Part shown: in pieces, positions 20,002-31,049 of the stretch | How positions within the stretch are numbered: the stretch's first letter is position 1 | Layout: the number at the start of each line of letters is the position of its first letter | DNA from: Thermoanaerobaculia bacterium | Lineage (GTDB): Bacteria > Acidobacteriota > Thermoanaerobaculia > Multivoradales > J023 | NCBI GenBank assembly: GCA_030431255.1 | Contig: JAUIJL010000007.1 | Span: forward strand, 248,001-312,000 | Direction of reading: 5' to 3' | Length of the DNA stretch: 64,000 nt | Translations under genes and position numbers: made by a program | Notes under the pieces: generated by a model | Seen by the model: only the letters and a program-made list of their open reading frames with translations | Database searches by the model: none | What the model was told of the DNA's origin: nothing

Positions 20002-21132
20002 TCACTCGCGAAGCGTGGCCCCATAACCCCGCTGCTCCGCGGCGTCGGCAATGCCGACGGCAAATCGCTCGTGGGCCACCGCGTTGAGGTGATCGTCCCA
20101 CCCCAACCCGAATTTCGAAGCGGTTTCGGGCCAGCTTCGGGCTTCCGGCAACAATGCCAGCAGCTCGACCACGGGAACGTCGTGCTCCACACCGAGTTCT
20201 TGAAAAAGCCGACGATAGTTCAGTCGTCCGGCAAAGGGCGCCATGACCACGGGGATGTCGCGCTCGTTGAGGGTCGAGAGCATGGCACCCAGCGGAACGT
20301 AAAGGGTCTTCTCAAGCCTCGGATCCACCTCCGCCTCCGGGACCTTCGGCAACGGCGCCATCCAATGCTCCCGCGGGTCCTCTTTGCCCTGCCTCATCTC
20401 CTGCGCTTCTCGCTGCAAACGGTACCTTTCCCGCGTCAGCTGCAAGTAGAGCAAGAGACGGCTTTCCGTCAACCACCACGGCGGCGGCTCCACGTTCGAT
20501 TCCACCAGATCGATAGATTTATCGAGCAGGCGAGAATCCTCATTGGAGAGATCTCCGTCCACATGAAGGTAGCCCGCTTCGTCCACCTTCATCGCCGGCT
20601 CGTTGTCGTTGACACAGGGAACGATCACCACCATATCAGGCTCAAAACCCAACGCGATCCGATCCAACACCGCCTTCTGTTGAAAGCTGTTGTACCCGGC
20701 AACACCAAACCCCAACACCTCCACCGGAACCCCATAGCGCCGGGTCAGCTCCCGAGCCAACACCTCACCCACCGAGTCCTCGAACGGAACCCCGAATCCG
20801 AACGCATGGGAATCACCGAGCAAAGCCACCCGCCAATGCCCCGGCGTTTTCTTCTCAGACCACTCAGGACCCCGAAAACCGAGCCGATTGATGCTCAGAG
20901 GCACCCCATATCCAATACCCTCGAAACCGGGCTCATAGGTGTAGTGAAGCCCCGGAATATCGGAAGTCCGATAAAAGCTCGCAATCGGCCAGAACGTATG
21001 CTCCGGCACCAAAACACGGGCCAGCACCTCACCCAGCCCAGCCGTGATCAACACCACCAAGACACCGGTCATGCACACAAAGATCCAACGTCGTGTGGCG
21101 GAGATCGAGGGATGGGATCCAGCGGCGGTCAT
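20002..21132 (-). CDS. Membrane-anchored SGNH/GDSL-type hydrolase
   Basis: 376 residues with one N-terminal membrane helix (about 15-40), the rest probably outside. SGNH blocks are visible: the catalytic Ser in LLGDSHAFGFG (about 105), Gly in GFGVAGYNS (about 141), Asn in VPCVNDNEP (about 173), and Asp/His in WDDHLNAVAHERFA near 350. Family members are esterases or acyl-transferases acting on sugars, lipids or polysaccharides. Convergent with the ADOP permease across the G-rich repeat. No neighbouring polysaccharide genes indicate its substrate. Confidence 0.87.
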   Translation of the reverse strand: MTAAGSHPSISATRRWIFVCMTGVLVVLITAGLGEVLARVLVPEHTFWPIASFYRTSDIPGLHYTYEPGFEGIGYGVPLSINRLGFRGPEWSEKKTPGHWRVALLGDSHAFGFGVPFEDSVGEVLARELTRRYGVPVEVLGFGVAGYNSFQQKAVLDRIALGFEPDMVVIVPCVNDNEPAMKVDEAGYLHVDGDLSNEDSRLLDKSIDLVESNVEPPPWWLTESRLLLYLQLTRERYRLQREAQEMRQGKEDPREHWMAPLPKVPEAEVDPRLEKTLYVPLGAMLSTLNERDIPVVMAPFAGRLNYRRLFQELGVEHDVPVVELLALLPEARSWPETASKFGLGWDDHLNAVAHERFAVGIADAAEQRGYGATLRE

Positions 21133-21499
21133 GGGGCTCTTCGATGTAAAAGGAGTGAGGCGGATTTGGAACCCGCCGAGTATAGCTGCCGAGTCGAGAC
21201 TCAGGTGACCGACAGGTCCACGCGGGAAGAGGTCGACTTGCGGAGTCTGACGATTGCTCTACAAGGAGAAGGCATTGAAGGTAACGACCCATGTGAGCGC
21301 GCGGGAACCACCGGCATGATGGTCCCCACTGGCTAATTGCAGCATGGAGCTCTGGACGCGTGGCTTGCCGAGCGCGTGCGCAAGTCGACCAGCGATCACG
21401 CGAAGGGTTGATTGCTATTTGATTGCTGGCACGCGAAAAGGGCACCTCATGAGAAGCGCCCTTTGCTATCGTAAAGCCTTGTGGCTGAACATTTTGTAG
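21133..21499. other. Host intergenic region left of the integrated element
   Basis: 367 bases between the SGNH hydrolase start and the displaced tRNA fragment. The right part holds the tRNA terminator listed separately. I see no reading frame, RNA gene or repeat in the rest. Confidence 0.4.
21436..21461 (-). terminator. Rho-independent terminator, originally of tRNA-Arg(ACG)
   Basis: On the minus strand a nine-pair stem (two G-U pairs) with loop TCAT is followed by TTTT. It lies about 40 bases beyond the displaced tRNA 3' end, where the host tRNA gene would have terminated before integration. Confidence 0.75.
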
Positions 21500-21549
21500 A
21501 TGGTGCACCCGTAGGGATTCGAACCCCAAACCTTCTGATCCGTAGTCAG
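21500..21549. repeat. Left attachment site: displaced 3' part of tRNA-Arg
   Basis: Perfect 50-base match to 30044-30093. It covers CCA, the T-arm, the variable loop and the anticodon arm, and homology stops after GTCAG. Minus-strand sense. Confidence 0.92.
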
Positions 21550-21716
21550 GTACACATCCAGGCCCCCATTTACGATTTGTTCACACATGCAGCCATAACC
21601 TCTTTGTTTTCAGCTTTCATGATAGAGTCGACCTCGAAGCAAGAACCACAAGAGTGCATAGATTTCGATCTGATGTGGTTACTTGATGGTTACTTCTGAA
21701 CTGCCTGGAGGTCGCG

Positions 21717-22892
21717 ATGAGGCTCACCAAAACTGCCGCTGATGCAGCCACTTTTGCTGGTGGAACGGACTATCGTTGGGATGACGCTCTGCCGTGTTTT
21801 GGGTTGCGGATCTATCCAAGCGGGCGGAAGGCGTTCGTTGTCAGTTATCGGTACCAGCGGCGTAAGAAAATCAAGGTTCTGGGTCGTTACGGCGTGCTGA
21901 CAGTCGACCAAGCTCGGCGGCGTGCGAGGGAAGTGCTGGCCGAAGTGACTTTGGGGCACGAGCCATCAACCTCCCGGAACGAGGCATCAGATGCTCTACC
22001 GACTTTTGCCGACTTGGCAGAGCGCTACCTTCGAGATCATGCGATCCCGAAGAAGAAACCCAAGAGCGCTGCTGAAGACAAGCGCATGCTGGAAGCCACC
22101 ATCCTCCCTGCGTTCGGCACCATTGCAGCGGAAGCCTTGAGTCGTGACGACATCTCTCGCTTGCACAGCTCGCTCGGTGCCACGCCCTACAAAGCGAATA
22201 GGGTGCTCGCGCTGCTACGGAAAGCCTGTAACCTGGCAGAAGCTTGGGGCTGGAGACCAGACGGTTCGAACCCTTGTCGCCATGTACAGCCCTTCAAGGA
22301 GAAAAGCCGCGAGCGGTTTCTCTCCGCCGAAGAGCTTGGTCGGCTAGGCGTGGTTTTGAATGAGGCAGAGGAGAGTGAAGTGGAGTCGCCGGTGGCGCTT
22401 GCTGCGATTCGGTTGCTGCTGCTCACGGGTTGTCGGAAGTCTGAGATTTTGAGTCTCCGCTGGGAAGAGGTCGATCTGGAACGACAGGTTCTGTTCCTTC
22501 CTGATTCCAAAACTGGTGCCAAGGTGGTGCCACTCGGAAGAGCGGCCGTCGATGTTCTTGAGCACCAGAGAATCGTGCAAGGCAACCCGTACGTCTTCCC
22601 AGGCAGAGGAGGAAAGGGGCATTTAATCGGTCTTCAGAAGATCTGGGAGCGAATCCGGGAATCAGCGGAGCTTCCCGACGTGCGCCTGCATGACTTGCGG
22701 CATTCCTTTGCCAGCGCAGGAGCTGGCGTTGGTATGGGACTCCCCATTATCGGAAAGATCCTCGGTCACGCTGATCCCGGGACGACTGCTCGCTATGCTC
22801 ACTTGGCGACGGATCCGTTGGTGCAGGCGGCTGATCAGATCTCGAAGAAGCTGGCAGCCGGCTTGGGAGAGATTCCGTCTCCTCTCGAATAG
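21717..22892 (+). CDS. int: Tyrosine recombinase (phage/island integrase)
   Basis: 391 residues, ATG preceded by GGAGG six bases upstream. The N-terminal domain (about 1-85, FGLRIYPSGRKAFVVSYRY) is of the DUF4102 type found in tRNA-targeting P4-like integrases. A core-binding domain covers about 95-185. The catalytic domain follows, with Arg in LTGCRKSEIL (about 245), HDLRHSFAS (about 325), LGHADPGTTARYAH (His and Tyr, about 350-362). All five standard catalytic positions appear present, so it is probably active. Located 168 bp inside the left att site, pointing into the element, as expected for the enzyme that recombines the 50-bp tRNA core. Confidence 0.95.
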   Translation: MRLTKTAADAATFAGGTDYRWDDALPCFGLRIYPSGRKAFVVSYRYQRRKKIKVLGRYGVLTVDQARRRAREVLAEVTLGHEPSTSRNEASDALPTFADLAERYLRDHAIPKKKPKSAAEDKRMLEATILPAFGTIAAEALSRDDISRLHSSLGATPYKANRVLALLRKACNLAEAWGWRPDGSNPCRHVQPFKEKSRERFLSAEELGRLGVVLNEAEESEVESPVALAAIRLLLLTGCRKSEILSLRWEEVDLERQVLFLPDSKTGAKVVPLGRAAVDVLEHQRIVQGNPYVFPGRGGKGHLIGLQKIWERIRESAELPDVRLHDLRHSFASAGAGVGMGLPIIGKILGHADPGTTARYAHLATDPLVQAADQISKKLAAGLGEIPSPLE

Positions 22893-23768
22893 TGCCTATG
22901 CTCACTTCGGGAGATGGTGAGTGGCGAATCCAATTGCCGTCGAGCAGCCAGGACCAGGTGAACCTGGGTATTTTGTTTCTATGCAGGCTTGCCGAAGGAC
23001 ACACTCTTACAATGAGTGTCCTTCAAGATTTTGTCCGCTTTCCGAGGTGCTTTTCGTCGGCTGCCTGGCATTCTGTGGGGTCGAGGGGCGAAGCCCCTGC
23101 AAGAGCGATTGGGCTTCGAGCTTTGCTCGGCTGCCCAATTGCAATCTTGCCCCTGCCCTAAGCTGTGCTTCCAAGGTGGGGTCACCGCTCACCTCTGCGG
23201 CAGCTTTGCTGCCCACTGCGGAAAAGCCCGGGGATGTTGGTCAGCCGTGGGAGGCTCGGCAATCATCGTCAAAGATGGACATCTTCGTCGTCGACTTTGG
23301 CGACGTCTCTGCGGAACCTTTGCTGCCTGAAACGCAAGCAAAAGATTAGACCGCAGGAAGGTCAACACAAGACCGAGCACCCTCTCTTCTTGAGAGTTGA
23401 TACTGGACACTCATCTCAATAGTAGGGTAGCTTTACCAATTAAGCAGTCTCGAACGCTCTGATGATATTCTACTAAATCGCGCAATATGCGCATAACTAG
23501 AACCTTGCATATTGACTGCCAGAAAATTCTGTAAAATAGCTCTGTCATGTACAGGCGGAGGAGAATTCGATTTGACGAGCATTGAATATTTACTTGATTC
23601 AAGAAAGATGATATAATTTAATAGATTTCAATTCGATTTCTGCTGCCAAAACCCTTCTCTCTCGACGGCATAAGGCAAAGATTAAGCAGTCATAGAAAGG
23701 CAGCTGCTCAAGAATGCCAAAAAAGCAATGATGGCAACCTACCGCCCCATGAGAGGCACGTTGCCTCG
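22893..23768. other. Long non-coding stretch with a series of hairpins, then AT-rich DNA
   Basis: No convincing gene. Strong stem-loops: 22994-23024 (11-pair stem with a 2-base bulge, ending near AAGATTTT, a possible integrase terminator), 23084-23098 (AGGGGC/GCCCCT), 23108-23139 (ATTGGGC/GCCCAAT enclosing GAGC-TTT-GCTC), 23199-23213 (GGCAGC-TTT-GCTGCC) and 23289-23305 (CGTCG/CGACG around ACTTTGG). The last three share TTT in the loop. From about 23400 to 23700 the DNA is AT-rich and carries the likely cassette promoter. Confidence 0.5.
23589..23617 (+). promoter_or_regulatory. Candidate promoter of the DUF4407 cassette
   Basis: A perfect TATAAT (23612-23617) with a weak TTTACT 17 bases upstream, in AT-rich DNA ahead of the first cassette gene. 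The interrupted palindrome TTGA-T-TCAA lies in the spacer and may bind a regulator. Confidence 0.4.
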
Positions 23769-24017
23769 TTGCAGCAGAGGAGTCAACTTTCTGTAGTTGA
23801 ACTCTATGGCACAGGATTAAGGCGGCTAGGACAACTCATAGATCGAAACCGAAGAGAGATCACCTCAATTGAAAATAAGCTAGCCGAACTCATCGGAGAT
23901 GATGAACGACCACTAGATGAGATTCAGAAAGACTGGCAAGCAAAACTCGTTGCTGAGACAAAGAGACGTCAGAAGATTGCTGCTAAGAAGGCGGCCCAGG
24001 AGTTTACTGAGAATTAG
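23769..24017 (+). CDS. Small charged helical protein, first gene of the DUF4407 cassette
   Basis: About 82 residues, start uncertain: the only standard codon in frame near the beginning is a TTG with GAGAGG twelve bases upstream. Residues 12-80 are predicted helical and strongly charged (LGQLIDRNRREITSIENKL, then a Lys/Ala-rich end KRRQKIAAKKAAQEF), so a coiled coil is likely. No signal peptide or membrane segment. A 22-codon open frame (23728-23796) overlaps its start and could couple translation. It is 27 bp from the next gene in the same direction. I do not recognise the family. Confidence 0.5.
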   Translation: MQQRSQLSVVELYGTGLRRLGQLIDRNRREITSIENKLAELIGDDERPLDEIQKDWQAKLVAETKRRQKIAAKKAAQEFTEN

Positions 24018-24044
24018 CACATACAGAAAAAGAGAGGTACTGAA

Positions 24045-24614
24045 ATGACCGAGCTAGACCACTACGAAGAGCATTTCCCTGCGGTCCAAGACAGTAATGA
24101 AATTGCCGAATTTCTGAAAAAGCACCATCATGAAGTGAGCAAAAAAGTCAGCAAGCTCGCTCTTGCCAGAGAGAACCAATCTCTCCTCAGACGGCTCTTC
24201 CCCACGGATCTCGACAAGGTTTTTGCAGATGCAAAGGTACAGGCTGCAACTACAGAGTTGTCGTTTCGCCATGCCGCGCTTGAACTCAGCGCAAAATCTA
24301 AGATGGAAGCGGTGGAGGAGCAATGCCAGGTTATGGTCAGGATGGTCAAGTCTCACCATCGAGCCGAATTCGCAAAATTCGTTACTGAGGCGTATTTGAG
24401 GCTCAGTGAAGACGTCGACCAGAAAACCAAAAGGCACCTCGAAGGTTCACGCAAGAGATACGAGACCTACGAGGAGTTCAAAGACCTCCCTGTTGGCGCC
24501 ACATACATGAAGCACATCACAGCAGCCGATGATAAATTTTTTCGATGGCTCGAGAAATTGCTTGAGAACTTTCGCTCGATTGCAGATGAGAAGGTTCGGC
24601 AATACCGTTTATAG
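24045..24614 (+). CDS. Helical cytoplasmic protein of unknown family, second gene of the DUF4407 cassette
   Basis: 189 residues, ATG with GAGAGG eight bases upstream. Almost entirely helical and charged, no hydrophobic segment, no Cys-metal cluster. Notable segments are the His-rich FLKKHHHEVSKKVSKL near the N-terminus and FFRWLEKLLENFRSIADEKV at the C-terminus, which could be amphipathic. No enzyme motif is visible. Its position between a small coiled-coil gene and a membrane coiled-coil gene suggests the three products interact, perhaps as a membrane-bound complex. That is inference. Confidence 0.65.
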   Translation: MTELDHYEEHFPAVQDSNEIAEFLKKHHHEVSKKVSKLALARENQSLLRRLFPTDLDKVFADAKVQAATTELSFRHAALELSAKSKMEAVEEQCQVMVRMVKSHHRAEFAKFVTEAYLRLSEDVDQKTKRHLEGSRKRYETYEEFKDLPVGATYMKHITAADDKFFRWLEKLLENFRSIADEKVRQYRL

Positions 24615-24706
24615 CAGATTGTGGAACTGGCATGCGATTGAGAGGTGAAATTTACATGGGTTTACCGCTAGCCTAGCCCACACGCCTACCGACGAAAATA
24701 CGAATC

Positions 24707-24745
24707 ATGAAGAGCCGACAAGAGGGGGGGGGGCATTCGCAATGA
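24707..24745 (+). promoter_or_regulatory. Poly-G tract inside a 12-codon mini-ORF overlapping the DUF4407 start
   Basis: A run of ten G (24724-24733) lies 8 bases before the DUF4407 ATG and supplies its ribosome-binding site. The same G run is inside a mini-ORF (ATG 24707, product MKSRQEGGGHSQ) whose TGA overlaps the gene's ATG as ATGA. With ten G the mini-ORF stops there. With eleven or eight G it would read in frame into the gene. Confidence 0.6.
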
Positions 24746-26451
24746 AAGATTTTTTTATATTCTGTTCAGGGGCGTCTCGCGACGTTCTGGAGCTGTGCTC
24801 GTCAGCCGAAAGATCGAAGCAAGTCATGGTCGGAGTGACCATTCTGTTTACCGGCATATTTGCTGCGATTTCATGCTTTTATGCATTGTACAAGGTTTTT
24901 TTGGGCGAAGCCTATGCCGTGCCATTATCGATAGCATTCGGTTTTCTATGGGGCGTCTTCGTCTTCAACCTGGACCGTTTTCTAGTCTCTACTGTTCGCA
25001 AAGAGGGCTCCTTCATCAAGGATTTTCGCAATGTTTCGCCGCGTATCCTCTTGGCGATAGTAATCGCCCTTGTGATAGCAACTCCTTTGAAGATCAGAAT
25101 CTTCGAAGATCGGCTTGAGCGGCAAATTCATGAGATGAGGAAAGTCGAATCTGAGCGAGACAAAGAATTCTATGAGAGTAATTCTTCTTTGAGTACCTGG
25201 AGAGAAGAGCGATCCAAGCTGGATTCGCAGCTTGCCGCAGTCTATGACAAGAAGACCTCCAACCCAGAAAATGCTGACCTTGAGTTTCAGCGTCAGCTTT
25301 ACAAGGACTGTACTGAAGAAGTTGATCGCCTTGAAGAAGAGAAAAGAAAAAACATCCCTCTGGTGAATGCCGAGCTGGAGAAAGTTCAGACTGCTATCAA
25401 CCAGGAGGTAGAGTCCCGACAGAAGGCACGTGATGATGAGGAGGCTGCTAGTGCCGAGCTTCAGGACGTACGACGTAGGATCGACATCTATCTGGAGACA
25501 GAAGCCACCCTTCAACGGGAAATCGCCCCGAATACAATCGAAATCTCTTCGCGAGTACCATCTATTCCTACTGGACTAAGAAATGAGAGGATCGCTGCAC
25601 AAGAGAGAATCAACCAGGTCCAGGCTCTTCAGCGGGAACTCTCGGCAAGAATCAATAAGCTCGTCTTCGACCGTAAGAATATTCAATTACGTAAGACCGA
25701 GCTGGCAGGGGCTCCCGGCCGAAAACGACAGGAGTGTCAAGAAGTACAGCAGGAAATTACACGGATCAGCCAGCAAATAGAAATTGCTCACAATGAGTGG
25801 CAGCAAGAAATCGAAGAACAAATAGCAGTCAATACCGATCGAATGAATGCCGCGCAGGAGAAAGTTGACGCTGGCATCAAGGAAGGTGCCAAGGCAATTG
25901 ATATCTCATATAGCGGAAATTTTCTGACACAGCTGGAAGCTCTCGGGAAGCTCGTGGAAAAACCCTTTACGATGTTTTGGTGGATCCATTGGATGATATC
26001 AATTCTTTTTATATTGGTGGAGACAGCACCTATATTGGTAAAACTCCTCACTCCCCGAAGCGCCTACGATTCGATTGCCGACAAGGTTGATGCAGAAAGC
26101 GAGATTGCCGGGATACAGTTCGCGGTAAATCACCGAAAAATTAAGGTTGCTCAACTTTTGAAGGATCGAATGGCAGAAGTACGTACCGCAAACGAATTAC
26201 TCTTTGATGAATATCAAAAACGGCTCCTGCACTTTGGGGACCTGATGGCGGATAATCTTGACAGTTTCAATAAGCTTGCACTGAAACTATCGAAACTGGA
26301 ACGAGGACCAGCAGTCTTAGAGTTGCTTCATGAGCTTTACGACAAGGTTACTGAGGATGCCTTGCGGGGATTCGACAAGAGAAGCAGAGAAATCGTGGCA
26401 GAAGAGGGAGAGCTCTTGGATGCTGTTGAAAGGAAACACCATCGCGGCTAG
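24742..26451 (+). CDS. DUF4407-family membrane protein with long coiled coil
   Basis: 569 residues. The opening FFIFCSGASRDVLELC, the phrase GFLWGVFVFNLDRF and four hydrophobic helices (about 28-50, 58-80, 98-118, 408-433) fit DUF4407 (PF14362), of unknown function. Between helices 3 and 4 is a long coiled-coil region (about 120-405) rich in Glu/Arg/Gln, and a 130-residue charged helical tail follows helix 4. The even number of helices puts both ends on the same side. Its length and topology resemble membrane stators or tethered sensors, but no such homology is visible. Last gene of the cassette; translation may depend on the preceding poly-G tract. Codon use is less GC-rich than host genes. 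Confidence 0.82.
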   Translation: MKDFFIFCSGASRDVLELCSSAERSKQVMVGVTILFTGIFAAISCFYALYKVFLGEAYAVPLSIAFGFLWGVFVFNLDRFLVSTVRKEGSFIKDFRNVSPRILLAIVIALVIATPLKIRIFEDRLERQIHEMRKVESERDKEFYESNSSLSTWREERSKLDSQLAAVYDKKTSNPENADLEFQRQLYKDCTEEVDRLEEEKRKNIPLVNAELEKVQTAINQEVESRQKARDDEEAASAELQDVRRRIDIYLETEATLQREIAPNTIEISSRVPSIPTGLRNERIAAQERINQVQALQRELSARINKLVFDRKNIQLRKTELAGAPGRKRQECQEVQQEITRISQQIEIAHNEWQQEIEEQIAVNTDRMNAAQEKVDAGIKEGAKAIDISYSGNFLTQLEALGKLVEKPFTMFWWIHWMISILFILVETAPILVKLLTPRSAYDSIADKVDAESEIAGIQFAVNHRKIKVAQLLKDRMAEVRTANELLFDEYQKRLLHFGDLMADNLDSFNKLALKLSKLERGPAVLELLHELYDKVTEDALRGFDKRSREIVAEEGELLDAVERKHHRG

Positions 26452-26745
26452 CCCCTTGATCAAAATAGAGGTTTTGTGTTCTTGTACTAAGTTCGCCTAG
26501 CATCCCACTCTCTCAACATCACCCTAAGAAACGGGCGAGACCTGCCTCCGATGATTCGACCGTGGAGAACGTACTCATCCGCCCTGAGAATGTCGCCAAC
26601 GGAGCCCCCCGGCATCCCAACCTCATCACCGATTCCTCGACATCTCCTGAGTCCCGCGGCAGGATGAATTTCGTCTTCGGACACCTTCACCCTTCTTCGA
26701 TTTTTCCCAAGGAGATCATCTCCTCGCCCTCTTCTCTTTTCCTTC

Positions 26746-26889
26746 ATGGCGATCAGCATTTCCCAAGCTCGCGAAATCCTTGGCTCCGATGCGGAAGCGC
26801 TGTCCGACGAAGAGATCCACAAGATCCTGGAGGGTCTCTACCTGCTCGCCAACGATCTGCTTGATGGATCAAGGGATGAAAATCTATAG
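26746..26889 (+). CDS. 47-residue protein upstream of the serine recombinase
   Basis: Short frame starting MAISISQAREILG and ending 26 bp before the recombinase start. The composition is protein-like: two predicted helices, SQAREILGSDAEALS and DEEIHKILEGLYLLANDLLD, with a helix-turn-helix look. Small proteins of this sort accompany some large serine recombinases and may act as directionality or accessory factors. No good ribosome-binding site is visible, so the start is not certain. Confidence 0.5.
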   Translation: MAISISQAREILGSDAEALSDEEIHKILEGLYLLANDLLDGSRDENL

Positions 26890-26914
26890 TCGTGGTGCTT
26901 TTATCCCCCTTTCC

Positions 26915-28516
26915 ATGACCAGCCCCTTAAAACCAGCCGTCATCTATTGCCGTGTCTCCAGCGAGAAACAAGCCACCGAGGGAAATGGCCTCACCAGCCA
27001 GGAATCCAGTTGCCGCCACTACGCCGTTGACCACGGTTACGATGTCCTCAAAGTCTTTACCGACGACTACACCGGCGGCGGTGATTTCTGGAAGCGGCCC
27101 GGCATCACCGCCCTGCTTGAGTTTCTCGATGGACAGAATGAAGAAATTGCCGTCATCTTCGATGATCTCAAGCGTTTTGCCCGCGACACCATGTTCCATC
27201 TCCAGCTGCGTCAGGAGCTGACCTCACGCAATGCCGTTCCTCGCTGCCCCAACTTCCGATTCGAAGAGACCCCAGAAGGACATTTTGTAGAAACGATCAT
27301 CGCCGCCACTGCTGAGCTGGAGCGCAAGCAGAACCGGCGACAAGTGATCAGTCGCATGAAGGCGCGTTTTGAAGCTGGGTATTGGGTGTTCGCGCCGCCA
27401 CTGGGCTATTGCTATACCCGCCAGAATGGCGAAAAACGTCTCGTGCCGGAATATCCAAACGCCACCATCGCTAAAGAAGCCCTCGAAGGATTTGCATCAG
27501 GCAAACTTCCAGACAAAGCCAGTGTCGCCAGATTCTTCGAGGCAAAGCAATGCTATAGCCGCTGGTCGAGAGGAAAGACCCTCGTCCTGCAAAAAGTCGA
27601 GCGCTTCCTCCGCAACGAAATCTACAGTGGGTGGTGTACATCCAAACGCTGGGGGCTCAAAGTGCGCGGAATCCATGAGCCCCTGATCTCTGAAGAAACC
27701 CACCGCCGAATCCGAGATCGGCTGAAAACACGTCGCCCCTTCCGAATGCGACGCGATGCTCGCAAAGAGTTCCCCTTGCGCAACGATGTCCATTGCTCCC
27801 AATGCCAAAAATCACTGACCGGATACTGGGCACAGGGTCGCAGCAAAAAATACCCCTACTACAGCTGCCAAACGCCCCGCTGCGTCAATATTCGAACCGA
27901 GAAAATGGAAGCCATCTTCGTTGACCACCTCTCCAAAGCGACACCAACACCAGAAGCGTTGAAGCTTTTCCGCGCCGCGCTCTTAGACGTCTCCAAAGAT
28001 CGAGAGCTGCTCCGCCGCAATGAACAAGAACAGCGTCGGCAACGCCTCGCAAAGATCGAAAAAGAAACCACCGGCTTCTTGGAAGCCCTGGCACGCGCAC
28101 CCACTCCAGCAGTCAGCGAAGTCTACGAAGCGCGCATCGAAAAACTCCAACTTGAAAAAGCAGAGCTTCTAGACCTTCCCGACCGAGACCCCGCGTCGGA
28201 AATTGAACCAGTCTTGGAGAAGGGGCTTGAAGTGCTCAAGAATCCAGCCCAGTACTGGCTTTCGGGCGATTTGCGTGCGCGGAAACTGACCCAAAAACTC
28301 GTATTTGAAGGGGCTATTCCGTTCGATCCTAAGAAAGCCTATCGAACCGCCAGATTCTCGCTTCTGTACAGGCTTCTTAGGGGGCCTGAAGGTGGTTCAG
28401 GACGTTTGGTGGACAGAATCCACAGGAACTTGAACCCGGTAGCCGAAGAGTTCCTACGCTGGGGAGAAATTCTAGAAAACTACTTTCGGCTGGATGCCGG
28501 GGAGTCCTCAGGCTGA
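26915..28516 (+). CDS. Large serine recombinase
   Basis: 533 residues from the Met just before the catalytic domain. The resolvase domain (about 8-150) begins AVIYCRVSSEKQ, with the nucleophilic Ser about residue 15. DDLKRFARD contributes the active-site Arg region, and IAATAELERKQNRRQV is the end of that domain. The 'recombinase' domain (about 165-265) and a zinc ribbon (CSQCQKSL...YYSCQTPRC, about 295-335) follow, then a coiled coil (about 360-430). It is intact. Elements normally need only one integrase, so this enzyme may belong to a second, nested element or have moved in as cargo. No att repeats specific to it are visible. Confidence 0.92.
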   Translation: MTSPLKPAVIYCRVSSEKQATEGNGLTSQESSCRHYAVDHGYDVLKVFTDDYTGGGDFWKRPGITALLEFLDGQNEEIAVIFDDLKRFARDTMFHLQLRQELTSRNAVPRCPNFRFEETPEGHFVETIIAATAELERKQNRRQVISRMKARFEAGYWVFAPPLGYCYTRQNGEKRLVPEYPNATIAKEALEGFASGKLPDKASVARFFEAKQCYSRWSRGKTLVLQKVERFLRNEIYSGWCTSKRWGLKVRGIHEPLISEETHRRIRDRLKTRRPFRMRRDARKEFPLRNDVHCSQCQKSLTGYWAQGRSKKYPYYSCQTPRCVNIRTEKMEAIFVDHLSKATPTPEALKLFRAALLDVSKDRELLRRNEQEQRRQRLAKIEKETTGFLEALARAPTPAVSEVYEARIEKLQLEKAELLDLPDRDPASEIEPVLEKGLEVLKNPAQYWLSGDLRARKLTQKLVFEGAIPFDPKKAYRTARFSLLYRLLRGPEGGSGRLVDRIHRNLNPVAEEFLRWGEILENYFRLDAGESSG

Positions 28517-28971
28517 CCTCCTTCGATGGTTCGGCTGAGTCAGCTCACCCCTCAGCTCTTTCGCAGCACAACAGGACATTGTGCAAGGAGTTCCTCGCCA
28601 AGCCCTTCCTTCCGGTCGGGCAAGGCAGAAACTTTGCACGAATGCACTTTTGTGCTTTGCGCTCCTGTCCATCAGCACGGTTGAAGGAAGACAGACCAAC
28701 CTCCTCCCCAACCACCAGCCAGCTTGCTCAGCCTGAGAAATTTGTATGGAGAGTTGTATTTCAGTGGTCGCTGAGGTGTTTTTCGCATTGATGCGAACAG
28801 CCCACTAAGTGCTATGTAATCAGTATCTTACATTCTCGAAAGATGTCCAGTGAGGTGATCCGGTTAGGGTATCCAACAACCGGATAGGGCAAACGGGTAG
28901 CGCTGCACCAAATCATCCTTTCTCTTCGGTCCAATCTGGGCGAATCAGCAAGGAGAGGAAAAAGCGCTGGC
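28517..28971. other. Stretch without a recognisable gene inside the element
   Basis: 455 bases after the serine recombinase. Short open frames exist on both strands, but none has protein-like composition or a binding site. No strong hairpin with a T-tract was found. Confidence 0.4.
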
Positions 28972-29412
28972 TTAGGGGTGAGCAGGCCACGGCGTTTCAT
29001 CCAACCACTGCCGATGAGCAGGATTCTGAGACCAGTAGTGCCGCGTCTCAGGGTGCAGCTCCGAAGCTGGAAGCACCCCCTCCGCTCGTCGGCGAATGAC
29101 CATCAGAATTTTTTGTAGAGCTTGCTGAGTCGGAATCCACGTTTCCGGGTGAGGCTGCCATGCCTGATGCCAGAGCACGCGGATATGTGCCCCGGAAGCC
29201 GGATCAACTCCACGCTCCAGGTCAACCGCCTCGAACCACTCCAGCACGTCGATCAACTGGGACCGTTCCACAGAACGAAGGTGCTGAACTACAGGGCGCG
29301 GATAGGGAGCTGGTGAAGCCTGCCAAAACTCCATGCGCCGTTGCAGGACGTGAGCAGGTTCCACTTGTGGAAACCAGACTTGAGAATCGCCACCGTTATC
29401 GAGTCGATCCAT
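28972..29412 (-). CDS. Hypothetical protein, last of three small minus-strand ORFs in the element
   Basis: 146 residues, unusually rich in Trp, Pro and His (QPHPETWIPT, HYWSQNPAHRQW), soluble, without motifs I know. A segment resembling helix-strand domains lies at about 50-110 (LIDVLEWFEAVDLERGVDPASGAHIRVLWHQ is its core region, positions 53-83). The ATG overlaps the end of the preceding gene by 17 bases in another frame, suggesting coupling. Function unknown. Confidence 0.45.
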   Translation of the reverse strand: MDRLDNGGDSQVWFPQVEPAHVLQRRMEFWQASPAPYPRPVVQHLRSVERSQLIDVLEWFEAVDLERGVDPASGAHIRVLWHQAWQPHPETWIPTQQALQKILMVIRRRAEGVLPASELHPETRHYWSQNPAHRQWLDETPWPAHP

Positions 29413-29626
29413 GGGAAGGGAAAAAATACGAATGGGAATGATGCTCTGCTCCTCGCCGGAATTCCTCCTCCATACTGAGCACGAAGTCGAGTGCCAGACC
29501 GTTCACGTCGTTGACTCCGGTCTCCAGATCAGAGTCAAGGATCTTTTCGAAAACAACTTTTTGCAGCCGCGTCAGCAGCTCGCGTTCAATTTCTGCCGGA
29601 GTGACGAAGAGATCGCAAGGAGACAT
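29396..29626 (-). CDS. Small hypothetical protein in the element, middle ORF of three
   Basis: 76 residues, acidic and helical: TPAEIERELLTRLQKVVFEK, then LDFVLSMEEEFRRGAEHH. No membrane segment or known motif. Overlaps the following 146-residue ORF by 17 bases and lies 18 bp after the 58-residue ORF. No clear ribosome-binding site, so translation may be coupled. Confidence 0.4.
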   Translation of the reverse strand: MSPCDLFVTPAEIERELLTRLQKVVFEKILDSDLETGVNDVNGLALDFVLSMEEEFRRGAEHHSHSYFFPSHGSTR

Positions 29627-29644
29627 TCAAGGTCGGGAAAAAGG

Positions 29645-29821
29645 TCATCCCACACAGTACGATCGGTTCGGAAGCCCGGTCAAGTCGATTTCAAGGGGTA
29701 GAAAACCTACCCTCGCCAAAAGCACCACCAGGAGCAACAATCCTGCGCTTGACTGGGTGGGGATTTTGGTGGGTTGCAGCAGTCTCCTCGCATCACGCCA
29801 GAAGCGTCGCAAGGTCCCCAT
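29645..29821 (-). CDS. 58-residue protein with one membrane helix, first of three minus-strand ORFs
   Basis: Starts MGTLRRFWRDARRLL, basic, followed by one hydrophobic helix (about residues 27-41, GLLLLVVLLARVGF) and a short tail. The positive-inside rule puts the N-terminus in the cytoplasm. Weak binding site. Small single-helix proteins of this shape can be toxins or immunity proteins, but nothing specific supports either. Confidence 0.35.
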   Translation of the reverse strand: MGTLRRFWRDARRLLQPTKIPTQSSAGLLLLVVLLARVGFLPLEIDLTGLPNRSYCVG

Positions 29822-29978
29822 CACTCGTCAGGTGTCTGGCGGTCAAGTTCGTAGCGGCGAACATGAGCATCAGGTCGCTTTCAGGTCCCTGGGAGTGATG
29901 GAGAGTGGAGCCTGATCCGAAGCGATGGTCCGATCGCTGGGCCAGGGGCGCTGGTTACTCTGTGGTTACTCAACGCAG

Positions 29979-30002
29979 AAAAGACACTTCCGAAGAAGTG
30001 CC
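29979..30002 (-). terminator. Element-supplied terminator of tRNA-Arg(ACG)
   Basis: Minus-strand hairpin GGCACTTC-TTCG-GAAGTGTC (eight pairs, stable UUCG-type loop) followed by TTTT, 42 bases after the tRNA 3' end. It replaces the host terminator left at 21436-21461. Confidence 0.78.
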
Positions 30003-30043
30003 TTTGAATATCTGCAAAGCCTTGCGGCTAAAGCTTTTAAGGA

Positions 30044-30093
30044 ATGGTGCACCCGTAGGGATTCGAACCCCAAACCTTCTGATCCGTAGTCAG
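30044..30093. repeat. Right attachment site within the intact tRNA gene
   Basis: Perfect 50-base counterpart of 21500-21549. Identity ends at GTCAG, in the anticodon stem, so the crossover lies between there and the CCA end. Confidence 0.92.
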
Positions 30094-30121
30094 ATGCTCT
30101 ATCCAGTTGAGCTACGGGTGC
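30045..30121 (-). tRNA. tRNA-Arg, anticodon ACG, integration target
   Basis: 77 bases: acceptor GCACCCG/CGGGTGC, D-arm TAGCTCAACTGGATAGAGC, anticodon stem TCTGA/TCAGA with loop CTACGGA (anticodon ACG), T-loop TTCGAAT, encoded CCA. The 5' third is host DNA and the 3' part is shared with the element's att core. Confidence 0.95.
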
Positions 30122-30150
30122 GTCCTCGGCATCGCTGCCGCGGAGGCGGG

Positions 30151-30179
30151 ATTGTAGACGATCGGTTTCGGCGCTGCAA
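30151..30179 (-). promoter_or_regulatory. Promoter of tRNA-Arg(ACG)
   Basis: TTGCAG (30174-30179) and TACAAT (30151-30156) with a 17-base spacer, 29 bases upstream of the tRNA 5' end on the host side, so the gene keeps its native promoter after integration. Confidence 0.7.
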
Positions 30180-30230
30180 GCCTGTGGCGGAATTTTTTTG
30201 CCACGGGTGCTTTCGGCGCTGAATCGAGGC

Positions 30231-31049
30231 CTATTCGATGAGGCCGTCCAGGGGTGAGGACGCGGTGGCGTAGAGTTTTTTCGGGATTCGGCCGGCGTGG
30301 GCGGCGAGCCAGCCGGCTTCGACGGCTTGTTTCATGGCGTAGGCCATGCGGATGGGGTCGGCGGCACCGGCGACCCCGGTGTTCATGAGCACGCCGTCGG
30401 CTCCCAGCTCCATGGCGATGGCGGCGTCGGAGGCGGTGCCGACGCCGGCGTCGATGATTACGGGCACGTTGGATTGCTCGATGATGATCTGCAGGTTGGC
30501 GCGGTTGCGGATGCCCATGCCGGAGCCGATGGGCGCGCCCAGGGGCATGACCGCGGGCACGCCGAGGTCTTCGAGCTTTTTGCAGGTGATGGGATCGTCG
30601 CTGGTGTAGGGCAGCACCACGAATCCTTCGTCGATCAGGATTTTGGTGGCTTTGAGCAGCTCGACGTTGTCGGGGAAGAGGGTTTTGGGATCCCCGAGCA
30701 CCTCGAGCTTGACCCAATTCCAGCCCCCCAGCTCGCGGCCGAGGCGGGCGGTGCGCACGGCGTCGTCGGCGTTGTAGCAGCCGGCGGTGTTGGGCAGGAA
30801 GAGGTATTTCTTCGGGTCGATGTGATGGATGAAGGCGTTGGGGTCCGGATCGTTGAGGTCGACGCGGCGCAGGGCCACGGTGACCATTTCCGTGCCGGAC
30901 ACCTCGAAGCTGTGGACCATGGTGTCGGCGTCGGTATATTTGCCCGTGCCGAGGATCAGCCGGGAATGGAAGGTTCGATCGGCGAGAGTCAGCGGCTCGA
31001 CAGTAGTGTGAGAGACCGTGTGAGACGCGTTGTCGGTAGCGGTGGTCAT
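30231..31049 (-). CDS. thiG: Thiazole synthase
   Basis: 272 residues from the ATG at MTTATDN. An upstream in-frame GTG would add 17 His-rich residues. ThiG joins deoxyxylulose phosphate, dehydroglycine and ThiS-thiocarboxylate to make the thiazole of thiamine. Typical blocks: [10 protein letters not shown], the Schiff-base lysine in VKLEVLGD (about 110), [14 protein letters not shown], and [11 protein letters not shown] with LMNTGVAGA (phosphate binding). No thiS, thiH/thiO or thiE is adjacent, so the pathway must be completed elsewhere. The leader contains two copies of GGTTCCGTGGCAAT (31055-31083) and no TPP riboswitch. Confidence 0.95.

What the first reader, a model, noticed from the sequence alone, without database searches (positions are those of the whole stretch)
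23769..26451. Three-gene DUF4407 cassette as candidate undescribed defence or competition system
A small coiled-coil protein, a 189-residue soluble helical protein and a four-helix DUF4407 protein with a roughly 285-residue coiled coil form one directional unit in the cargo slot of an island that otherwise carries only recombinases and small ORFs. Cargo in that position is often defence-related. A membrane protein with a long coiled coil plus soluble helical partners could be a membrane-acting sensor/effector. None of the three has an enzyme motif.
Basis: inference. Interest (0 to 1): 0.72.

Follow-up and report, generated by a model that had tools for sequence, protein, structure and literature searches.

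The report
Mobile two-gene membrane coiled-coil module
A small mobile island carries a rare pair of genes, a membrane protein with a very long coiled coil and a helical partner, that recurs in distant relatives and looks like a membrane sensor module; a role in phage defence is plausible but untested.

Summary
The DUF4407 gene (24742-26451) and the 189-residue gene before it (24045-24614) are real and form a conserved pair. The 82-residue ORF at 23769 is not supported. The island is a tRNA-Arg integrated element with exact 50-bp ends.

The partner's profile matched 3 of 396 genomes of a sample of the phylum, each time directly upstream of a DUF4407 gene, at 20-29% identity to the window's copy, and 0 of 296 Bacteroidota. 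The pair is old, rare and sporadic. In genome G132 it rides a second tRNA element, with an SMC-type ATPase resembling Lamassu LmuB, a methyltransferase and a toxin-antitoxin-like pair.

DUF4407 itself is broader: chromosomal single genes in Bacteroidota, single genes in Lak megaphages, kinase fusions on two Rhodococcus plasmids, a short form in a retron/McrBC island. The kinase fusions put the C-terminus in the cytoplasm, so the coiled coil should face outward.

Best reading: a membrane sensor with a cytoplasmic partner, probably a conflict or defence module (0.4). Envelope-stress signalling is the main rival. No function is shown by experiment.

The parts
21500..21549 (.). left end of the island: 50-bp exact copy of the 3' part of tRNA-Arg
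   Evidence: direct repeat, 100% identical to 30044-30093
21717..22892 (+). tyrosine integrase, 391 aa
   Evidence: PF00589 9.3e-25, PF13356 6.4e-14
23589..23617 (+). possible sigma-70-type promoter, extended -10, upstream of the unit
   Evidence: 10 of 12 matches, TTTACT-17-TATAAT; but 5 sites were found in the region where shuffles give 4.2
23769..24017 (+).
   Evidence: length expected by chance; no homologue in the two other pair-bearing genomes
24045..24614 (+). partner gene, 189-aa soluble, predicted all-helical protein without an assigned family
   Evidence: homologues directly upstream of DUF4407 in G132 and G302; no family match above a cut-off
24724..24733 (+). G10 tract, 8 nt before the DUF4407 start codon
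   Evidence: only homopolymer run of 8 nt or more in the 64-kb window
24742..26451 (+). DUF4407 membrane protein, 569 aa: three helices, about 297 residues mostly predicted helical, a fourth helix, 133-residue tail
   Evidence: PF14362 2.7e-65; hydropathy; AlphaFold2 model
26780..28516 (+). large serine recombinase
   Evidence: PF00239 9.9e-24, PF07508, PF13408
30044..30093 (.). right end of the island, inside tRNA-Arg
   Evidence: direct repeat
30045..30121 (-). tRNA-Arg (acg), the integration site
   Evidence: ARAGORN, Rfam RF00005 68 bits

Best explanation
A rare, horizontally moving two-gene module. The DUF4407 protein sits in the inner membrane by four helices, N- and C-terminus inside, and sends an extended helical coiled coil of about 297 residues outward into the periplasm. 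The 189-aa helical protein is cytoplasmic and binds the 133-residue inner tail. A disturbance outside or at the membrane (most likely phage adsorption, DNA entry or another invading element) would be felt by the coil and passed to the partner, which then harms or arrests the cell or blocks the invader. SHOWN: the pair, its adjacency, its mobile setting, the four-helix layout, the kinase fusions. INFERRED: the outward coil (from the fusions and the charge of the loops), the partner's binding, the trigger, and that the purpose is defence.
For: Partner and DUF4407 are adjacent in 3 of 3 partner-bearing genomes of 396 sampled, at 20-29% partner identity. Sporadic: 1 of 148 genomes of the class, 1 of 119 in G132's order, 1 of 15 in G302's. 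Two of the three pairs lie in tRNA-integrated elements: the window and G132 (46-bp repeats at 91%, tRNA-Met, integrase PF00589 8.3e-33). The G132 element also carries an SMC-type ATPase (PADLOC mad3 5.6e-11, LmuB 2.1e-10), a type II methyltransferase (3.6e-47) and a Gp49/HTH_37 pair. A divergent short DUF4407 in Bacteroidota (L090) lies among a retron-type reverse transcriptase, McrBC-like genes, a WYL regulator and an OLD/AriA-type ATPase; another (L092) lies beside an Mrr-type nuclease and a Fic gene. DUF4407 is fused to a C-terminal Ser/Thr kinase domain on two Rhodococcus plasmids.
Against: No PADLOC model matches the partner or DUF4407 convincingly in the window (best E 0.0097, an SMC-like coiled-coil model) or in G132. 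The window island carries no other defence gene that I recognised. Most DUF4407 genes seen are chromosomal single genes without the partner. Only three pairs are known here, one split over two contig ends. No fold match; the partner's model is poor (pLDDT 49).
Confidence: 0.4

Rival explanations
1. Envelope-stress or cell-wall signalling module that happens to travel on mobile elements: DUF4407 senses envelope state and the partner relays it; no link to phages.
For: Chromosomal DUF4407 follows BlaI-like and M56-like genes in 6 of 16 Bacteroidota loci read (Penicillinase_R 5.5e-29 and Peptidase_M56 1e-13 for L113). The Rhodococcus fusions lie with PP2C, FHA and FtsW/RodA genes. An OmpA-family gene lies near one divergent DUF4407 (L093).
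Against: Those genes lack the partner. The paired form is sporadic and in two of three cases lies in a tRNA-integrated element, one with defence-type genes.
Confidence: 0.3
2. A function for the element itself: superinfection or entry exclusion, or help in its own transfer.
For: The window island is 8.5 kb with two recombinases and little else. The contig that carries the other half of the G302 DUF4407 has a TrwB/HerA-like ATPase. DUF4407 is carried alone by Lak megaphages (15 phage records) and by three large viral contigs.
Against: No transfer gene was recognised in the window island. The phage copies lack the partner.
Confidence: 0.15
3. Three-gene cassette, with the 82-aa coiled-coil ORF as a true member.
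For: Same strand, 27 bp before the partner; G132 has a small ORF of its own directly after DUF4407.
Against: ORF length is at chance level, no homologue at the other two pairs, rare start codon.
Confidence: 0.07
4. Selfish or decaying cargo without a present function.
For: Rare, sporadic and divergent.
Against: Both reading frames are intact at about 20-29% identity in distant genomes, and adjacency has been kept.
Confidence: 0.08

Closest known systems
DUF4407 (Pfam PF14362), function unknown
   Same: The 569-aa protein is a clear member.
   Different: Its coil segment is about twice as long as in the chromosomal Bacteroidota form (297 against 148 residues in L113), and it comes with a dedicated upstream partner gene that those lack.
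DUF4407-Ser/Thr kinase fusions of Rhodococcus plasmids (L033, L109)
   Same: DUF4407 joined to a cytoplasmic output.
   Different: The output is a kinase domain of the same protein, with NYN, PP2C, FHA and FtsW/RodA genes around, instead of a separate helical protein.
Zorya (ZorA/ZorB)
   Same: Membrane complex with a long helical extension and a defence setting (abstract of PMC11890865).
   Different: ZorA's tail is cytoplasmic and belongs to a MotAB-like motor with a peptidoglycan-binding ZorB; here no MotA/ExbB or OmpA family matches the window proteins and the coil is inferred to be outside.
Kiwa (KwaA/KwaB)
   Same: Recalled, not read: a small membrane protein with a cytoplasmic partner.
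   Different: No Kwa model was listed for the window or G132 pair in PADLOC.

Membership tests
PF14362 DUF4407 | Pfam model over its gathering score | tested here: met
   221.1 bits against 31.3
tRNA-integrated genomic island | direct repeats, one in the 3' part of a tRNA gene, with an integrase gene between them | tested here: met
   50-bp exact repeats, tRNA-Arg, PF00589 integrase
tRNA-integrated genomic island | empty site in a close relative | not tested
any PADLOC 2.0.0 defence system | match of the pair to a defence model | tested here: not met
   window pair: only weak JetC coiled-coil matches, E 0.0097 and 0.12; G132 pair: E 0.03 at best
candidate defence module by location | neighbourhood with known defence genes | tested here: inconclusive
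   met in G132; not seen in the window island; G302 on short contigs
candidate defence module by function | reduced phage plating | not testable with these tools
   needs an experiment
Zorya | MotA/ExbB-type membrane subunit and peptidoglycan-binding partner | tested here: not met
   no such Pfam family at E up to 1 in the window proteins; the partner has no hydrophobic helix
Kiwa | KwaA and KwaB | tested here: not met
   no Kwa model among PADLOC matches at E up to 1

The most novel reading that the evidence does not exclude
DUF4407 is a general outward-facing 'antenna' of bacterial conflict and stress systems: a four-helix anchor with a coiled-coil arm of variable length that can span much of the periplasm, plugged into different inner outputs (a 189-aa helical partner here, a Ser/Thr kinase, a transglutaminase-like domain, other small upstream partners). 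The window's pair is the long-arm, two-gene defence version, its expression perhaps switched by a G10 tract.
Probability: 0.2. Interest if true: 0.8.

Novelty: new variant of a known kind. Interest (0 to 1): 0.5.

Why it matters
DUF4407 is widespread yet has no known function; the three papers found that name it only list it. A partner gene kept next to it across very distant genomes gives the first clear handle for a test of one form of it, and the kinase fusions suggest what kind of protein it is. If the pair blocks phages, it would be a membrane-based system unlike the ones tested for here.

Tried and rejected
Homology of the window partner to the small proteins that lie directly upstream of short DUF4407 genes in L088-L091: profile comparison gave probability 0.1 and E 0.44, so the likeness is of layout only. 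Solved relatives by sequence: only chance-like matches. Fold search of the DUF4407 model: none of 34 Foldseek matches at E 0.001 or better; VIA-align best Z 9.8, in the range its own notes call common for helical models. Partner structure: pLDDT 49, not used further. Plasmids: no match for window DUF4407 or partner. Viral contigs: none with window DUF4407 alone or the partner profile. PHROGs: nothing for the window proteins. Rfam: only the tRNA in 21000-31000. A small RNA or terminator in the island: counts at shuffle level. Distant four-helix, coiled-coil relatives of DUF4407 in G152, G329, G124 and in the host's contig C35 score 28-38 bits and barely match a profile of the close form; G152 and G329 pass Pfam's cut-off, so the partner accompanies 3 of the 5 genomes over the cut-off, namely the three with E of 2.4e-25 or better. 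I had no sign that these two were in the set, whose list of empty genomes is cut. One search scored only up to 7 candidates per genome, so its counts are lower bounds. One search had no positive control in its set, as the tool itself warned. The host's name was not established. Papers: DUF4407 was found in 3 papers (passages only), PF14362 in 1; none of 29 papers with two of Lak phage, Prevotella and DUF4407 was shown to hold DUF4407 among the 10 listed; a broad six-term search found nothing. For Zorya I saw the abstract and outline; for Kiwa only a search listing.

Full report
Observation. The window carries an 8.5-kb island between exact 50-bp repeats (21500-21549 and 30044-30093); the right copy is the 3' part of tRNA-Arg(acg). 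A tyrosine integrase follows the left end, and a large serine recombinase follows DUF4407. GC falls to about 0.48 in the middle, against 0.58-0.67 away from the island. The DUF4407 protein and the 189-aa protein are real; the 82-aa ORF is not supported.

The pair is conserved. In a sample of 297 genomes of the phylum, PF14362 exceeded its cut-off in 5. In the three with strong matches (G000, G132, G302; E 2.4e-25 or better) a 189-190-aa ORF lies directly upstream. These ORFs are homologous: BLASTP E 2e-11 between window and G132, and the G132 protein finds the other two at 3.6e-7 and 1.4e-5 in whole-genome searches. Identity to the window's partner is 20% and 29%. A profile of the three then matched 3 of 396 genomes, the same three, 1 of 119 in G132's order, 1 of 15 in G302's order and 1 of 148 in the window's class; each single hit is a genome already known. 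The other two genomes over the cut-off (G152, G329; 37.9 and 36.9 bits) hold remote four-helix relatives and showed no partner in what I could see. The G302 gene is split over two contig ends (C476 and C145); that these are one gene is my inference.

DUF4407 without the partner is common. In 296 Bacteroidota genomes (the phylum of G434, the genome of a locus titled Pararcticibacter; the phylum name is recalled) 92 exceed the cut-off and none matches the partner profile (no positive control in that set). None of 17 DUF4407 loci from Bacteroidota, phages, viral contigs and a plasmid has a partner ORF by profile at E up to 1, and none of 12 whole genomes or records behind such loci has one at E 0.001 (best 0.11). 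In 6 of 16 strongly matching Bacteroidota loci the gene follows a BlaI-like and an M56-like gene (Pfam run for L113 only).

Mobile and defence settings. In G132 the pair lies in another tRNA element: 46-bp repeats at 91% identity, tRNA-Met, integrase. Its other cargo includes an SMC-type ATPase (PADLOC mad3 5.6e-11, LmuB 2.1e-10), a neighbour with only weak matches (PDC-M19A 1.9e-4, LmuC 0.005), a type II methyltransferase (3.6e-47), and a Gp49/HTH_37 pair that looks like a toxin-antitoxin pair. I call this Lamassu-like only tentatively. The contig with the second half of the G302 DUF4407 also holds a TrwB/HerA-like ATPase. Divergent Bacteroidota DUF4407 genes show similar company: L090 with a retron-type reverse transcriptase (PADLOC 6.8e-95, RVT_1 1.4e-24), McrBC-like genes, WYL and an OLD/AriA-type ATPase (best NsnB 2.8e-39); L092 with an Mrr-type nuclease and Fic; L089 with WYL and a serine recombinase. 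These were chosen because they are divergent, not at random, so they give no enrichment figure. In 4 of 4 short forms (L088-L091) an ORF of 189-252 aa lies 2-27 bp upstream, but it is not detectably related to the window's partner.

Anatomy. Hydropathy gives four helices in 5 of 8 DUF4407 proteins examined; L098 and the L034 phage copy show three over the threshold, and L092 five. Two Rhodococcus plasmid proteins carry a protein kinase domain after the fourth helix. Since such kinases work on cytoplasmic ATP, the C-terminus should be inside; with four helices the N-terminus is inside too, and the segment between helices 3 and 4 is outside. The short loop between helices 2 and 3 in the window protein has 6 K+R and 3 D+E, as expected for an inner loop. 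The outward segment of 297 residues is predicted as long helices with a break near 259-276. If it folds back on itself, each arm of about 130 residues would be near 195 angstrom, comparable with the width of a periplasm (my arithmetic and recalled width); the L113 form has 148 residues there. The partner has no hydrophobic helix and is predicted all-helical with poor confidence.

Mechanism, in steps. (1) DUF4407 anchors in the inner membrane with an outward helical arm: inferred from fusions and charge. (2) The arm feels a change outside: inferred. (3) The inner tail and the partner pass it on: inferred from gene pairing. (4) The outcome limits an invader: inferred from mobile setting and neighbours. 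I put 0.4 on the whole, 0.3 on envelope-stress signalling without phage defence, 0.15 on exclusion or another service to the element.

Novelty. No paper found by name describes a function for DUF4407; only open-licence papers were searchable. The pair matches no PADLOC system. I file it as a new variant of a known kind: a membrane-protein-plus-partner accessory module in mobile islands, not a member of Zorya or Kiwa.

Noticed in passing
window 24724-24733: A G10 tract ends 8 nt before the DUF4407 start codon; it is the only homopolymer run of 8 nt or more in the window. An upstream ATG at 24707 is out of frame and its 12-codon ORF ends overlapping the start; a change of tract length could alter expression. 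Shuffles by 1-kb blocks give 0.77 G or C runs of 10 or more per window, so the count alone is not unusual.
   Followed up: partly
L028, L029, L034-L036: Prevotella Lak megaphages (15 phage records) and three viral contigs of 158-673 kb encode a DUF4407 protein without the partner.
   Followed up: partly
L033 5890-8376; L109 8121-10535: DUF4407 fused to a Ser/Thr kinase domain on Rhodococcus plasmids, in a conserved gene order NYN, DUF4407, PP2C, FHA, FtsW/RodA; in L109 next to a DNA cytosine methyltransferase and an HNH-family gene.
   Followed up: partly
L098 7157-8725: DUF4407 fused to a transglutaminase-like domain (residues 396-468, 1.3e-8).
   Followed up: no
L086 5279-9744; L087 5324-9482: Two Bacteroidota genomes share an operon with two DUF4407 genes in tandem followed by a 575-637-aa gene, with a DnaJ domain in L087.
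   Followed up: no
L111, L113, L114, L118, L120, L122, L102: DUF4407 directly downstream of BlaI-like and M56/BlaR1-like genes in flavobacterium-like loci.
   Followed up: partly
L090 3000-16000: Dense defence-type cluster: retron-type reverse transcriptase, McrBC-like genes, WYL, OLD/AriA-type ATPase and a short DUF4407 with its own upstream ORF.
   Followed up: partly
G000 contig C35 695327-696019 (L003): The host holds a second, remote DUF4407-like protein with three helices, a long spacer and a fourth helix, below Pfam's cut-off (28.5 bits).
   Followed up: no
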